Origin: Hydrogenophilales bacterium
GTDB lineage: Bacteria > Pseudomonadota > Gammaproteobacteria > Burkholderiales > Thiobacteraceae
Assembly: GCA_016235775.1 (NCBI GenBank)
Contig: JACRIU010000044.1
Coordinates: forward strand, 1-64,000
Reading direction: 5' to 3'
DNA: 64,000 bases
A program made the position numbers and the translations under genes. The number at the start of each line of letters is the position of its first letter. Position 1 is the stretch's first letter. Positions 49,006 to 56,688 of the stretch are shown one piece after another. The notes under the pieces were generated by a model. That model was not told the DNA's origin, made no database searches, and was given only the letters and a program-made list of their open reading frames with translations.

Positions 49006-49136
49006 GTGAATCCTTCTAGATTTGCGGATGGCGCAACATTTTGCCGCGCCGATGCGAATTGTACCCATATCGCGCGCGGATGGCTCTCGGGGGGACGCCG
49101 AAGACATGGGGACACACTCGATTTATCCAGGAAGCA

Positions 49137-49227
49137 TTAATGCGCCCGCTCCCAATTCGGCCCCACGCCCCCACTCACTTCCAGCGGCGCCACGCCGGTC
49201 ATGAGGCGCGGCAACTCGGCGTTGATG
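49137..49227 (-). pseudogene. Duplicated polA 3'-end fragment (left boundary of the accessory island)
   Basis: These 91 bp align with the true polA 3' end (53,950-54,052) with nine mismatches and one in-frame 12-nt gap. The minus strand translates to A-E-L-P-R-L-M-T-G-V-A-P-L-E-V and ends G-V-G-P-N-W-E-R-A-H-stop, as polA does. The two copies are direct repeats bracketing ~4.7 kb. No other polA sequence is seen here. The rest of 49,006-49,546 is AT-rich leader DNA with the Fic operators and no other gene. Confidence 0.88.
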
Positions 49228-49340
49228 GCACCGGAAACCGAATTTCTCCGATTGGTGATGGGGAAATAGCGGTGATGCATGAATGCCGTTTAAAAACCAT
49301 CAAGACTTGATTAGCCGATAACAAAGCTGGGGGCCCGTAC

Positions 49341-49543
49341 TATCAATCAAGCGATTTTCTGATAGCCCTGGCACAAAATCAACGCATTAAAATCCAAGAA
49401 CAAAGTTTATATTATTTATTTACAAACAGTTACATACATCCATGGCCGGGTCGCCAAGCAGCGAAGTATCAATATTTAAGTTTTTGATAGATAAAAACGG
49501 GGCGGTAGTCTAAAATGAAATATCAATTTTACGTAAGTTGATA
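49341..49543 (+). promoter_or_regulatory. Three palindromic operator sites upstream of the Fic gene
   Basis: TATCAA-N11-TTGATA occurs exactly at 49,467-49,489 and 49,521-49,543, and a variant TATCAA-N12-CTGATA at 49,341-49,364. The last site ends 3 nt before the Fic ATG at 49,547 and would cover its ribosome-binding region. The repeated spacing indicates a dimeric regulator. The C-terminal winged helix of the Fic protein itself is a candidate (inference). Confidence 0.75.
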
Positions 49544-49546
49544 GTT

Positions 49547-50920
49547 ATGAAAATACCAGAATCCCCGCCATCTCTCCCCGCCTTGCTCTCAAACATTAAG
49601 CCCGAGCGTTTCGCCACGCTTGTGCAGGAGCGGGGGCGATATGAGGCGGATTTGCGCTATCTACATTGGGATGAGTTACGCCATCGCCCCACGCCTGCGC
49701 CTGGCGTTAGCCACGAAGAGTGGTGGCTCATGCTGAAGCTTGGCCGGCAAAACCAGGCTCGCTTGCTCCCGCTACGCGACAAACTCGGCCGAGCCTTCAG
49801 TTATGTGCTGGCCGAGCCCATCCTGAAGTCCTTGCGCCATATCGATCGCTACGCGGGAGGAACAGACACCCCGGGCAACCCAAGCATCGACACTAGTATC
49901 GACATGGGTGAGCGCGACCGCTATCTATTCAATCAGATCATGGAAGAAGCCATTACTTCCAGCCAACTGGAGGGCGCTTCCACCACCCGCCGGGTCGCCG
50001 AGGAAATGTTGCGTAGTGGGCGCGACCCACGGGATATTTCCGAGCGCATGATCCACAACAATTTCGCCGCCATGCGCCACGTCCGCACCATCACCGGCAC
50101 GCCCCTAACACCGGAGGCGTTATGCGCCGTTCACAAAATCGCCACCCAAGGCACGCTGAACAATCCAGCGGAGGAAGGCGCGTTCCGCCTCGATGACGAA
50201 GTGCGCGTGGCGGATGATCGCGGCACGCTATTGCACGTGCCGCCCAAGGCCTCGGAGCTGACTGATCGCATGCAAACTCTTTGCGATTTCGCCAACCAGA
50301 CCGAAGACGACGAACCCTATTGCCACCCGGTGATTCGCGCCACGCTGCTGCACTTCATGCTCGGCTACAACCACCCTTTTTCCGACGGCAACGGCCGCAC
50401 GGCGCGCGCATTGTTTTATTGGTCCATGGTGCGCCAGGGCTATCACCTGATGGAGTATGTATCGATCTCTGAAATTTTGCGCAAAGCCCCAAGTCAATAT
50501 ATGCGGGCGTATCTGCATACCGAAACCGATGCCGGCGACGCTACCTATTTCATTCTCTTCCACCTGCGGGTCATCGAAGATGCGCTGAAGTCACTGCGCG
50601 TTTATCTGGCCCACAAAAACACCGAGTTGCAGCAAATCAAATCGCTCCTCGGTACTTTCAGGGATCGGGAAAAAATCAATCTGCGCCAGCTCGCCCTGCT
50701 GAACGGTGCGCTGAAAGGCCGCAGCGAGCCGTACACCATCGAGAGCCATCAACGCTCGCACAATGTGGCCTACGCCACCGCGCGTCAGGATTTGATGCAC
50801 CTGACCCGCTTGGGTCTGTTAACTGAGCAAAGAAAAGGACGGGCGTTCGAGTATTTCGCGCCGCAGGATTTGAAAAACATCATTGGTGAATTGGCAAAGA
50901 ATAGTGCAGACAATGCGTGA
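49547..50920 (+). CDS. Canonical Fic family AMP-transferase with C-terminal wHTH
   Basis: The 457-residue protein has the complete Fic motif H276-P-F-S-D-G-N-G-R-T-A-R287. The inhibitory-helix motif is S138-x3-E142-G143, so it is an intramolecularly inhibited class. A C-terminal winged-helix segment ('YTIESHQRSHNVAYATARQDLMHLTRLGLL') follows. Fic enzymes transfer AMP (sometimes other groups) onto Ser/Thr/Tyr of target proteins. The gene is on the plus strand within the accessory island, opposite to the cassette genes. Start ATG 49,547 is chosen over a TTG 9 nt upstream because the operator ends between them. Confidence 0.93.
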   Translation: MKIPESPPSLPALLSNIKPERFATLVQERGRYEADLRYLHWDELRHRPTPAPGVSHEEWWLMLKLGRQNQARLLPLRDKLGRAFSYVLAEPILKSLRHIDRYAGGTDTPGNPSIDTSIDMGERDRYLFNQIMEEAITSSQLEGASTTRRVAEEMLRSGRDPRDISERMIHNNFAAMRHVRTITGTPLTPEALCAVHKIATQGTLNNPAEEGAFRLDDEVRVADDRGTLLHVPPKASELTDRMQTLCDFANQTEDDEPYCHPVIRATLLHFMLGYNHPFSDGNGRTARALFYWSMVRQGYHLMEYVSISEILRKAPSQYMRAYLHTETDAGDATYFILFHLRVIEDALKSLRVYLAHKNTELQQIKSLLGTFRDREKINLRQLALLNGALKGRSEPYTIESHQRSHNVAYATARQDLMHLTRLGLLTEQRKGRAFEYFAPQDLKNIIGELAKNSADNA

Positions 50921-52763: not shown

Positions 52764-52860
52764 GCCTAACGTAATATAGACGGCGCCAACATTAGTGCGT
52801 GACGCCGTCTAAATCTTTAGTGAATTTATATCCAATTAATTTCATTTGAAATAAATCTTG
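52764..52860. other. attI-like region between cassette 1 and the integrase
   Basis: The core GTTAGGC on the minus strand marks the cassette junction. Next to it TAGACGGCG...CGCCGTCTA (52,776-52,813) forms a strong inverted repeat, as expected of integrase-binding sites in attI. It lies directly upstream of the integrase start at 52,894. Confidence 0.72.
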
Positions 52861-52893
52861 CCGTTTAATTTAGTCAGGCCTAAAATTTTGCGG

Positions 52894-53040
52894 ATGGAAG
52901 CTAAAGTCATTTCTCAAGATTCCCCCAAGCTACTTGACCAATTGCGTGCTGAAATTCGGGTGCGTCATTACAGTTTACGCACCGAGCAGGCGTATGTCGA
53001 TTGGGTGCGCCGCTTCATTTTATTCCACAAGAAACGGAAC
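52894..53040 (+). pseudogene. intI: Truncated integron integrase (IntI), N-terminal fragment
   Basis: The first ~49 residues match the SAM-like N-terminal domain of integron tyrosine recombinases: '[38 protein letters not shown]'. The match stops at 53,035-53,040 where a 13-bp tandem repeat begins, and the remaining ~280 residues with the catalytic R-H-R-Y are gone. The frame continues as unrelated sequence to 53,205. It diverges from the cassettes, the standard integron geometry. Confidence 0.88.
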
Positions 53041-53062
53041 ATAGGGTCAGAACATAGGGTCA
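53036..53062. repeat. Tandem repeat at the integrase break point
   Basis: GAACATAGGGTCA occurs twice back to back exactly where intI similarity ends. It may be the scar of an insertion or deletion that removed the rest of the integrase. Confidence 0.7.
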
Positions 53063-53108
53063 AATTTTGTATTGCCACATATATAGCCCACGGGGCGGAT
53101 TCCTATCC

Positions 53109-53417
53109 TCAGGTAACATCCCACGGCTTGCTGGCCCGGCCCACCAAATCCCGGCTGCCATGGATCACAGCCAAGATCGAGACGCGTTCCGGCTCCAATC
53201 GATAGATGATTCGGTAAGCTTGGAACAGGGGTTCCCGGATGGATTCCGTTCCAGCTTCCGGCACCATTCGGCCTAGACCGGGGAAATCGGCAAGCTTTTC
53301 TGCGGCAAGGATTAAACGTTCGACGAATTGCTCTGCGTAGAAGCGGGAATCTTGGCCGATATATTCATGAATGCCGCGCAGGTCGTTGACTGCCGGCTCG
53401 GTCCAAACAAGCTTCAT
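53109..53417 (-). CDS. ParE/RelE-family toxin
   Basis: The 102-residue protein has the ParE layout: '[33 protein letters not shown]', then '[10 protein letters not shown]' and '[31 protein letters not shown]'. Family members poison gyrase or cleave mRNA. It overlaps its antitoxin gene by ATGA. It lies between the integrase remnant and polA, within the accessory island. Confidence 0.9.
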
Positions 53418-53949: not shown

Positions 53950-56688
53950 TTAATGCGCCCGCTCCCAATTCGGCCCCACACCGACACTCACTTCCAGCGG
54001 CACTTCGAGTTGCGCCACGCCAGCCATCAGGCGCGGCAGTTCGGCTTTGATGATATCGAGTTCGGCGTCCGGCACTTCCAACACCAGCTCGTCATGCACT
54101 TGCATGATGATGAAGCTGCGCATTTTTTCCTGGCGCAGATAATCGTGCACGGCGATCATGGCGAGCTTGATCAGATCCGCCGCGGTGCCTTGCATCGGGG
54201 CGTTTATGGCGGCGCGCTCCGCACCTTGGCGGCGCATGCCGTTGCTGGAGTTGATTTCGGGTAGCCAGAGCCTTCTGCCGAAGACGGTTTCGACATAGCC
54301 TTGTTCGTGCGCGGCGTTGCGGGTGCGGGTCATGTAGTCGGCCACGCCGGGGTAGCGCGCGAAGTAACGGTCGATGTAGGCGGAGGCGGCGCTGCGTTCG
54401 ATGCCCAATTGGCTCGCCAGGCCGAAGGCGGACATGCCGTAGATGAGGCCGAAGTTGATCACCTTGGCGTAGCGGCGCTGCTCGCTGCTGACTTCATCCA
54501 CGCCCACGCCGAATACTTCCGCTGCGGTGGCGCGATGCACATCAAGACCCGCCGCGAAGGCTTTAAGCAGACCCTCGTCGTGCGACAGATGCGCCATGAT
54601 GCGCAGCTCGATTTGCGAGTAGTCGGCCGACACCAGCACGCTGCCGGGCGGGGCGATGAAGGCTTCGCGGATGCGGCGGCCTTCTGCCGTGCGCACCGGG
54701 ATGTTTTGCAGATTGGGGTCGCTGCTCGCCAGCCGCCCGGTGACAGCGACCGCCTGGTGATCGCTGGTGTGCACGCGCCCGGTAAGTGAGTCCACCATGC
54801 GCGGTAATTTGTCGGTGTAGGTGGATTTGAGCTTGGCCATCCCGCGATAATCGAGTAATAACTTTGGCAGGGGATAATCCAACGCCAATTCCGCCAGCAC
54901 TTCTTCATCGGTGGAGGGCGCGCCGCTCGGGGTTTTTTTCTTCACCGGCAATTGCAGTTGGTCGAATAAAATCTCTTGAATCTGCTTGGGCGAATTGAGG
55001 TTGAAGGGCTGCCCGGCGAGTGCGTGAGCATGGCTTTCCAAATCGACCAATTTTTTACCGATCTCGTGGCTCTGCGCGCTCAATAGATTGACGTCGATCA
55101 ACACGCCGACGCGCTCCATCTCCCACAGCACCGCCATGGCCGGCAACTCGATTGTTTTGTACACCGCATCCAACCGCGGCTCGCGCGCAATTTGCGGATA
55201 CAGCGCCTGATGCAAGCGCAGGGTGATGTCGGCGTCTTCCGCCGCATAGCGGGTGGCGGTTTCCACATCAACTTGGTCGAAGCCGATTTGCTTGGCGCCT
55301 TTGCCCGCGACTTCTTCGTAAGTGATGGTCTTGTAACCCAGATGGCGCTGGGCGAGCGAATCCATATCGTGCGGCTTGTGCGCTTCAAGCACATAGGATT
55401 CGAGCAGGGTGTCATGCACGATGCCGTTTAGCGTAATGCCGTGATTCGCAAAAATATGTTTGTCGTATTTCAAATGCTGGCCCAACTTGGGCTTGCTCGC
55501 ATCCTCCAGCCAGGGTTTCAGCCGTTGCAGGGCGTGCGCTAAATCGAGTTGCTGCGGCGCACCGGGGCCGGCGTGCGCCAGCGGCAGGTAAGCGCCCGCC
55601 AAGGCCGAGACCGCGAACGAGATGCCGACCAAGCGCGCCTGCATCGGGTCAAGGCTGGTGGTCTCGGTATCGACCGCGGTGAGCGGCGCATGGTTGATCT
55701 TGTCGAGCCAAGCATCCAGTTGGGCTTCGGTCAAAATCATTTCGTAAATTCCAGCCTGCGCCAAAGCCGGATCAAGTTCGGGTTCCGCTCCTGACGCGGG
55801 CACACCTGAATCCTGCTCCCCGCTTCCCGCTTCCTGCTTACCGGCGGTCTGCAATTCCCTCAACCAGGTTTTAAATTCGAATCGCCCAAACAACTCGCGC
55901 AGCTTGTCCACATCCGGCGCGGCGGGCGTGAGATTGGAGACATGCACCGGCAAGGGCACATCGCATTTGATGGTGAGCAGCGCGCGCGCCTGCGGCAGCC
56001 AGTCCAATGTTTTTCTCAAATTCTCGCCCACCACGCCGCCGATCTCGCTCGCATGGGCGATGATGTTATCCAGCGAGCCGTATTGGGTGAGCCATTTCAC
56101 GGCGGTTTTCGGCCCGACTTTTGCCACACCCGGCACGTTGTCCACCGCATCGCCGATCAGGGTGAGGTAGTCGATGATGCGCGCGGCGGGTACGCCGAAT
56201 TTGGCTGCTACGCCGGCTTCATCCAGCGTCTCGTTGCTCATGGTGTTGACGAGCTGCACCTGCGGATTCACCAATTGTGTGATGTCTTTATCGCCGGTGG
56301 AAATCACCGTGCGCAGGCCGTGCTTTTCGGCCTCGAACGCCAAGGTGCCGATCACGTCATCGGCCTCGACGCCGTCGATCATCAGCAGCGGCCAGCCCAT
56401 GGCGGACACGGCCTCATGCAGCGGCGGGATCTGCGTTGCGAGATCGTCCGGCATGGGCGGGCGGTCCGGATTATTCTCGGGATAGAGTTCGTCGCGGAAG
56501 GTCTTGCCTTTTGCGTCGAACACGCAAGCGATATAATCGGCGGGCACATCTTTGCGCAGCCGCCGCAGCATATTCAACACACCGTAGATTGCGCCCGTGG
56601 GTTCGTTCTGGGCGTTGCGCAAATCAGGCAGCGCATGAAACGCGCGATACAGGTAGGATGATCCATCGACTAACAGCAGGGTTTTCAT
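53950..56688 (-). CDS. polA: DNA polymerase I
   Basis: The 912-residue protein starts at the ATG at 56,688 ('MKTLLLVDGSSYLYRAFHAL'). It has the 5' nuclease domain, a 3'-5' exonuclease domain with 'AVDTETTSLDPM', and a family A polymerase domain ('SADYSQIELRIMAHLSHDEGL', 'RRYAKVINFGLIYGMSAFGLA', 'QVHDELVLEVP'). It fills gaps in replication and repair. Length is close to E. coli PolI (928). Its last ~33 codons are duplicated at 49,137-49,227. Confidence 0.98.
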   Translation of the reverse strand: MKTLLLVDGSSYLYRAFHALPDLRNAQNEPTGAIYGVLNMLRRLRKDVPADYIACVFDAKGKTFRDELYPENNPDRPPMPDDLATQIPPLHEAVSAMGWPLLMIDGVEADDVIGTLAFEAEKHGLRTVISTGDKDITQLVNPQVQLVNTMSNETLDEAGVAAKFGVPAARIIDYLTLIGDAVDNVPGVAKVGPKTAVKWLTQYGSLDNIIAHASEIGGVVGENLRKTLDWLPQARALLTIKCDVPLPVHVSNLTPAAPDVDKLRELFGRFEFKTWLRELQTAGKQEAGSGEQDSGVPASGAEPELDPALAQAGIYEMILTEAQLDAWLDKINHAPLTAVDTETTSLDPMQARLVGISFAVSALAGAYLPLAHAGPGAPQQLDLAHALQRLKPWLEDASKPKLGQHLKYDKHIFANHGITLNGIVHDTLLESYVLEAHKPHDMDSLAQRHLGYKTITYEEVAGKGAKQIGFDQVDVETATRYAAEDADITLRLHQALYPQIAREPRLDAVYKTIELPAMAVLWEMERVGVLIDVNLLSAQSHEIGKKLVDLESHAHALAGQPFNLNSPKQIQEILFDQLQLPVKKKTPSGAPSTDEEVLAELALDYPLPKLLLDYRGMAKLKSTYTDKLPRMVDSLTGRVHTSDHQAVAVTGRLASSDPNLQNIPVRTAEGRRIREAFIAPPGSVLVSADYSQIELRIMAHLSHDEGLLKAFAAGLDVHRATAAEVFGVGVDEVSSEQRRYAKVINFGLIYGMSAFGLASQLGIERSAASAYIDRYFARYPGVADYMTRTRNAAHEQGYVETVFGRRLWLPEINSSNGMRRQGAERAAINAPMQGTAADLIKLAMIAVHDYLRQEKMRSFIIMQVHDELVLEVPDAELDIIKAELPRLMAGVAQLEVPLEVSVGVGPNWERAH

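What the first reader, a model, noticed from the sequence alone, without database searches (positions are those of the whole stretch)
49341..49547. Fic gene under three TATCAA-N11/12-TTGATA-type palindromes
Seen: two exact and one near-exact copies of one palindrome in the ~200 bp before the Fic ATG, the last ending 3 nt from it. The Fic protein has a C-terminal winged helix. Inference: the protein represses its own gene, giving a self-limiting AMPylator switch similar to TA autoregulation. No separate antitoxin gene is present, and the inhibitory helix is built into the protein.
Basis: partly seen in the sequence, partly recalled or inferred. Interest (0 to 1): 0.6.

Follow-up and report, generated by a model that had tools for sequence, protein, structure and literature searches.

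The report
Self-repressing Fic gene with matching operators
A bacterial AMP-transferring (Fic) enzyme appears to switch off its own gene: the DNA palindromes in front of the gene change in step with one amino acid in the enzyme's DNA-reading helix across about 60 related genes, which makes the self-control testable with a single amino-acid swap.

Summary
Two exact TATCAA-N11-TTGATA palindromes (49467-49489, 49521-49543) and one near-exact N12 copy (49342-49365) precede a class II-type Fic gene (ATG 49547). The exact motif occurs nowhere else in the 3.0 Mb genome. Homologues from about 1,700 searched genomes, plus plasmids and viral contigs, carry palindromes of the same geometry in the same place, but the half-site differs between clades: TATCAA, TACTAA, TGCTAA, TACCAA, TACTTG, (A/T)CTCAA. 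The half-site is predicted by residue 410, at the start of the Fic protein's own recognition helix (Ala, Gln/Glu, Asp, Asn). The rule fits 38 of 38 homologues used to derive it and 21 of 22 held-out ones. Of about 441 protein columns, 410 covaries best with the operator by a wide margin. This argues strongly against an unrelated regulator and makes binding by the Fic protein very likely. Autorepression is inferred: two sites bracket a promoter-like sequence, 54 bp apart, as in close relatives. Fic-HTH autorepression is already proven for Yersinia CccR (PMC9755527), so the principle is known. The N11 operator, multi-operator layout and recognition code appear new. A self-limiting toxin switch remains untested.

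The parts
49342..49365 (.). Operator 1 (distal, near-exact): TATCAA-N12-CTGATA, centre -194.5 from the ATG
   Evidence: N12 sites at -183.5 (L001, L006, L073) and -192.5 (L002) in close relatives
49467..49489 (.). Operator 2: TATCAA-N11-TTGATA, centre -69; overlaps the putative -35
   Evidence: centre -69 also in L001, L002, L006, L073 and L074
49488..49516 (+). Promoter-like sequence TAGATA-N17-TAAAAT between operators 2 and 3 (consensus match only, 9 of 12)
49521..49543 (.). Operator 3: TATCAA-N11-TTGATA, centre -15, over the expected transcription start, 3 nt from the ATG
49547..50920 (+). Fic protein, 457 aa: class II-type inhibitory motif SSQLEG (138-143), Fic motif HPFSDGNGRTAR (from His276), C-terminal winged HTH
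50738..50809 (+). Helix-turn-helix (residues 398-421); recognition helix 409-421 begins Y409-A410-T411-A412-R413; residue 410 tracks the operator half-site

Best explanation
The Fic protein is a one-component autoregulator. Its C-terminal winged helix, presumably as a dimer, binds each TATCAA-N11/12-TTGATA palindrome, with residue 410 at the start of the recognition helix reading the middle of the half-site. Two operators bracket the core promoter, one overlapping the -35 and one over the expected start site, and a third lies about 125 bp further upstream, so bound protein would block transcription of its own gene and keep a potentially harmful AMPylator scarce. Supported by comparison: operator conservation, geometry and covariation with the protein's own recognition helix. 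Inferred: dimer binding, the sign (repression), AMPylation activity and any coupling between the two.
For: Exact sites only at this gene in the genome. Inverted repeats upstream of homologues: 23 of 45 loci have perfect 7-bp arms at N11, expected 1.5, largest of 100 shuffles 5. Residue 410 predicts the half-site: 38/38 in the set that gave the rule, 21/22 held out (permutation 0 of 20,000; mean 7.4); own-class site of at least 11/12 in 2 of 350 shuffled upstream regions. Column 410 ranks first of about 441, nMI 0.80-0.83 against 0.26-0.44 for the next; 414 and 411, second and third in the narrow set, lie in the same helix. On a tree built without the winged helix, the independent pairs that differ in half-site nearly always differ in residue 410 in the same direction and never in the opposite one. 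Two operators bracket a promoter-like sequence, 54 bp apart in the closest relatives. CccR, a class II Fic-HTH protein, represses its own promoter through an inverted repeat (PMC9755527).
Against: No expression or binding data. The independent-pair sign test cannot reach 0.05 (only 1-4 supported pairs by class). L008 has exact sites but at -316 and -372. L067 and several distant homologues (T or P at 410) show no clear site of a known class. L086 disagrees with the rule. Ten of 70 loci with a prediction have no strong site. The promoter is only a weak consensus match.
Confidence: 0.86

Rival explanations
1. The palindromes are bound by an unrelated host transcription factor that controls fic.
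For: Palindromes before a gene often serve other regulators; 50 places with up to 2 mismatches exist in the genome (29 in the control).
Against: Half-site identity tracks residue 410 of the Fic protein itself across several switches and in held-out loci; the exact motif is confined to fic; a matching pair also appears in a distant Fusobacteriota plasmid homologue, L087, with an 11/12 site.
Confidence: 0.03
2. The Fic protein binds the sites but activates, or switches between activation and repression, rather than simply repressing.
For: Distal sites exist (-183 to -228 in relatives); winged-helix proteins can activate.
Against: The proximal site lies over the expected start site and the next overlaps the -35; the proven relative CccR is a repressor.
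Confidence: 0.08
3. The repeats act in RNA (5' leader stem-loops) or are simple sequence artefacts, not DNA operators.
For: Site 3 may lie in the leader.
Against: Sites 1 and 2 lie upstream of or at the edge of the promoter-like sequence; the spacers vary in sequence and length; covariation is with a DNA-reading helix.
Confidence: 0.02

Closest known systems
CccR (YPK_0951), Yersinia pseudotuberculosis, PMC9755527
   Same: Class II Fic domain with N-terminal inhibitory motif and C-terminal HTH; binds inverted repeats before its own gene; proven autorepressor (read).
   Different: 380 aa, T6SS effector beside effector-immunity genes; one footprinted operator with 10-bp arms and N26 (AGATAATCAT-N26-ATGATAATCT); here 457 aa, hexamer half-sites with N11/12, several operators, no secretion link seen.
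SoFic family (SO_4266, PDB 3EQX/3ZCN; PADLOC SoFic)
   Same: Fic domain plus C-terminal winged helix, overall fold (Z 24.5, 3.8 A over 331 residues, 17% identity); PADLOC SoFic profile E 2e-41.
   Different: NCBIfam SoFic score 40 against cut-off 550; the first ~70 residues of the model lie outside the SoFic alignment (aligned from residue 74). An antitoxin AS1 is reported for E. coli Sofic (PMC12249575).
CbFic2, Coxiella burnetii, PMC10628234
   Same: Class II Fic with C-terminal winged HTH that binds DNA; DNA binding promotes dimerisation and stimulates (de)AMPylation.
   Different: Tested with random DNA; no own-promoter operator reported in the passages read; host-directed.
Type II toxin-antitoxin autoregulation (phd-doc and others)
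   Same: The product represses its own promoter through inverted repeats.
   Different: Here no separate antitoxin gene was found; DNA binding and the predicted catalytic and inhibitory parts are in one chain.

Membership tests
Fic/Fido AMP-transferase family (PF02661) | Fic domain above the Pfam cut-off with HPFx[D/E]GN[G/K]R motif | tested here: met
   PF02661 69.2 bits, cut-off 24; HPFSDGNGR
Fic/Fido AMP-transferase family (PF02661) | AMPylation activity | not testable with these tools
   needs biochemistry
Class II Fic proteins | Inhibitory motif [S/T]xxxE[G/N] on a helix N-terminal to the Fic motif in the same chain | tested here: met
   SSQLEG 138-143, E142 and G143 invariant in A1; model confidence there is low
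SoFic equivalog (NCBIfam NF046030) | Score above the curated cut-off (550 bits) | tested here: not met
   40.4 bits
Autorepressing Fic-HTH regulators (CccR-like behaviour) | C-terminal HTH in a Fic protein | tested here: met
   model secondary structure 379-437; alignment reaching the winged helix in 3EQX/3ZCN
Autorepressing Fic-HTH regulators (CccR-like behaviour) | Inverted repeats in the own promoter that the protein recognises | tested here: inconclusive
   repeats present and covarying with residue 410, which is strong but indirect; no binding assay
Autorepressing Fic-HTH regulators (CccR-like behaviour) | Repression of the own gene | not testable with these tools
   site placement only
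Type II toxin-antitoxin system | Separate antitoxin gene next to the toxin gene | tested here: not met
   no credible ORF between operators and fic; the downstream genes lie on the other strand

The most novel reading that the evidence does not exclude
A single-chain toxin-antitoxin-like switch: operator binding and AMPylation are coupled, for example enzyme activation or self-AMPylation near the recognition helix releases the operators and derepresses the gene, with DNA specificity evolving through single changes at residue 410.
Probability: 0.15. Interest if true: 0.7.

Novelty: new variant of a known kind. Interest (0 to 1): 0.48.

Why it matters
Many solitary Fic genes have unknown regulation and function. 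The comparison gives a simple, falsifiable DNA-recognition code for one Fic-winged-helix subfamily, indicates that its members carry their own operators in cis, and extends the single CccR case to a broad group. In 78 more distant Fic loci inverted repeats with spacers of about 5-19 are also far above shuffles, so self-control by the winged helix may be a general role of this domain in Fic proteins.

Tried and rejected
Two viral-contig scans: the single-protein query found nothing, the alignment query gave distant relatives used as held-out data. Order- and class-level searches around other homologues held 1-13 genomes and added one locus. A second class-level draw returned the same genomes as the first. 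Upstream 89-aa ORF 49041-49310 rejected as an antitoxin: no Pfam match, and it overlaps a fragment of the polA 3' end read on the other strand. Requirement for Tyr409 (as a self-AMPylation site) not supported: it is replaced by T, E, D, S or R in homologues, and Y to T goes with TACTAA to TGCTAA in L037/L038, which fits DNA reading better. The printed repeat lists were empty because of a script fault; only its counts are used, and these used mononucleotide shuffles. The protein with the single-mismatch site before it (PPK2) was not pursued further.

Full report
Observation. The two exact palindromes TATCAA-N11-TTGATA are at 49467-49489 and 49521-49543, and a third with one changed base and N12 is at 49342-49365. 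The pattern with N9-14 is expected 0.00 times in the window and occurs only at these two places in the 3.0 Mb genome. The gene that follows, ATG 49547, encodes 457 aa with a Fic domain (PF02661), the Fic motif HPFSDGNGRTAR and the class II inhibitory motif SSQLEG. The AlphaFold2 model (mean pLDDT 78) ends in a helix-turn-helix plus two-stranded wing, with the recognition helix at 409-421. The closest solved folds are Fic proteins with a similar C-terminal domain, such as 3EQX and 3ZCN (Z about 24).

Are the sites conserved? Homologues were collected from genomes of the same order, class and phylum. Their upstream regions show inverted repeats next to the start codon. Perfect 7-bp arms with an 11-nt spacer occur in 23 of 45 loci against 1.5 expected (largest of 100 dinucleotide shuffles 5); neighbouring odd spacers are enriched too, as longer palindromes with the same centre would give. 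Of 60 loci with a strong site, 40 have two or more. A promoter-like TAGATA-N17-TAAAAT lies between sites 2 and 3 (consensus match only).

The recognition code. The half-site is not the same everywhere: TATCAA, TACTAA, TGCTAA, TACCAA, TACTTG and (A/T)CTCAA were found. When the recognition helices are aligned, the residue equivalent to Ala410 follows the half-site: Ala with TATCAA, Gln with TACTAA (TGCTAA where Tyr409 is Thr), Asp with TACCAA, Asp-Val/Ile with TACTTG, Asn with CTCAA. This rule was written in the notebook before further homologues were fetched. The Glu class was added, and the Asn class was generalised to any N-T-A helix, only after seeing held-out loci; so the 3 Glu matches are not a blind test and the 10 Asn matches only partly so. 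The remaining Ala, Gln and Asp-Val cases are blind. Scored mechanically, the first set agrees in 38 of 38 and the held-out set in 21 of 22 with a site of at least 11 of 12 matches; label permutations never reach this (0 of 20,000, mean 7.4). Shuffled upstream regions reach such a site of the predicted class in 2 of 350. Ten further loci with a prediction had no site this strong and were not counted. Some held-out loci are near-copies of first-set ones (L072 of L001, L074 of L002).

Is it phylogeny? Among about 441 aligned columns, 410 has by far the highest normalised mutual information with the half-site (0.80-0.83; next 0.26-0.44), and in the narrower set the next two columns, 414 and 411, are in the same helix. 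A shared history would raise many columns alike. On a tree made without the winged helix, the half-site switches several times and the residue goes the same way in nearly all independent pairs and never the other way, but the number of supported independent pairs (1-4 by class) is too small for a significant sign test.

Mechanism. The simplest reading is that the Fic protein's winged helix binds these operators and represses its own promoter. Binding is strongly supported by comparison. Repression is inferred from the placement of the operators and from CccR, a Yersinia class II Fic-HTH protein for which reporter, gel-shift, footprint and mutant data show autorepression through an inverted repeat (PMC9755527). 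The operators differ (10-bp arms, N26 in CccR). In Coxiella CbFic2, DNA binding promotes dimerisation and stimulates enzyme activity (PMC10628234), so coupling between operator binding and enzyme activity is possible here but untested. The exact site is confined to fic, although four single-mismatch places exist, one directly before a polyphosphate kinase 2 gene.

Context. The gene lies between a fragment of the 3' end of polA (49137-49227, 80% identical to the real end at 53950-54052; in-frame last 29 codons) and polA itself, with three uncharacterised genes, a truncated tyrosine recombinase and a ParE-type toxin gene in between. The nearest relatives' fic loci do not share these neighbours in the flanks held. 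This suggests a small mobile patch at the polA end, which fits a gene that brings its own operators.

Novelty. Autorepression by a Fic-HTH protein is known. No paper found in seven searches describes this subfamily's operators or a residue-to-half-site code; the library holds only open-licence papers. I rate it a new variant of a known kind.

Noticed in passing
49137-49227 and 53950-54052: Direct repeat: an in-frame copy of the last 29 codons of polA (80% DNA identity) flanks fic on the far side, so the ~4.8 kb between (fic, three hypothetical genes, recombinase fragment, ParE) may be an insertion at the polA 3' end.
   Followed up: partly
52858-53205 (+) and 53109-53417 (-): Truncated tyrosine recombinase (Phage_int_SAM_4 N-terminal domain only) overlapping a ParE-family toxin gene; the antitoxin partner was not sought.
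   Followed up: no
L176:1501-1523 (G000 contig C7:70135-70157, beyond the window): TATCAATTTTTTGGGAGTTGATC, one mismatch to the operator, ends directly before the ATG of a polyphosphate kinase 2 gene; possible second target or chance.
   Followed up: partly
L008 upstream, -316 and -372: Two exact TATCAA-N11-TTGATA sites 56 bp apart but about 300 bp before fic, with no clear gene between; long leader or start misplacement.
   Followed up: partly
L091 and L092 upstream: Homologues with MTAIKDL/GTAIADL helices carry AATAGG...CCTATT palindromes (-72.5 and -66), a likely further specificity class outside the tested code.
   Followed up: no
78 distant Fic loci (from L013-L034 and L113-L175): Upstream inverted repeats with spacers of about 5-19 are roughly 5-15 times above mononucleotide shuffles, so palindromic operators may be common before other Fic genes.
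   Followed up: partly
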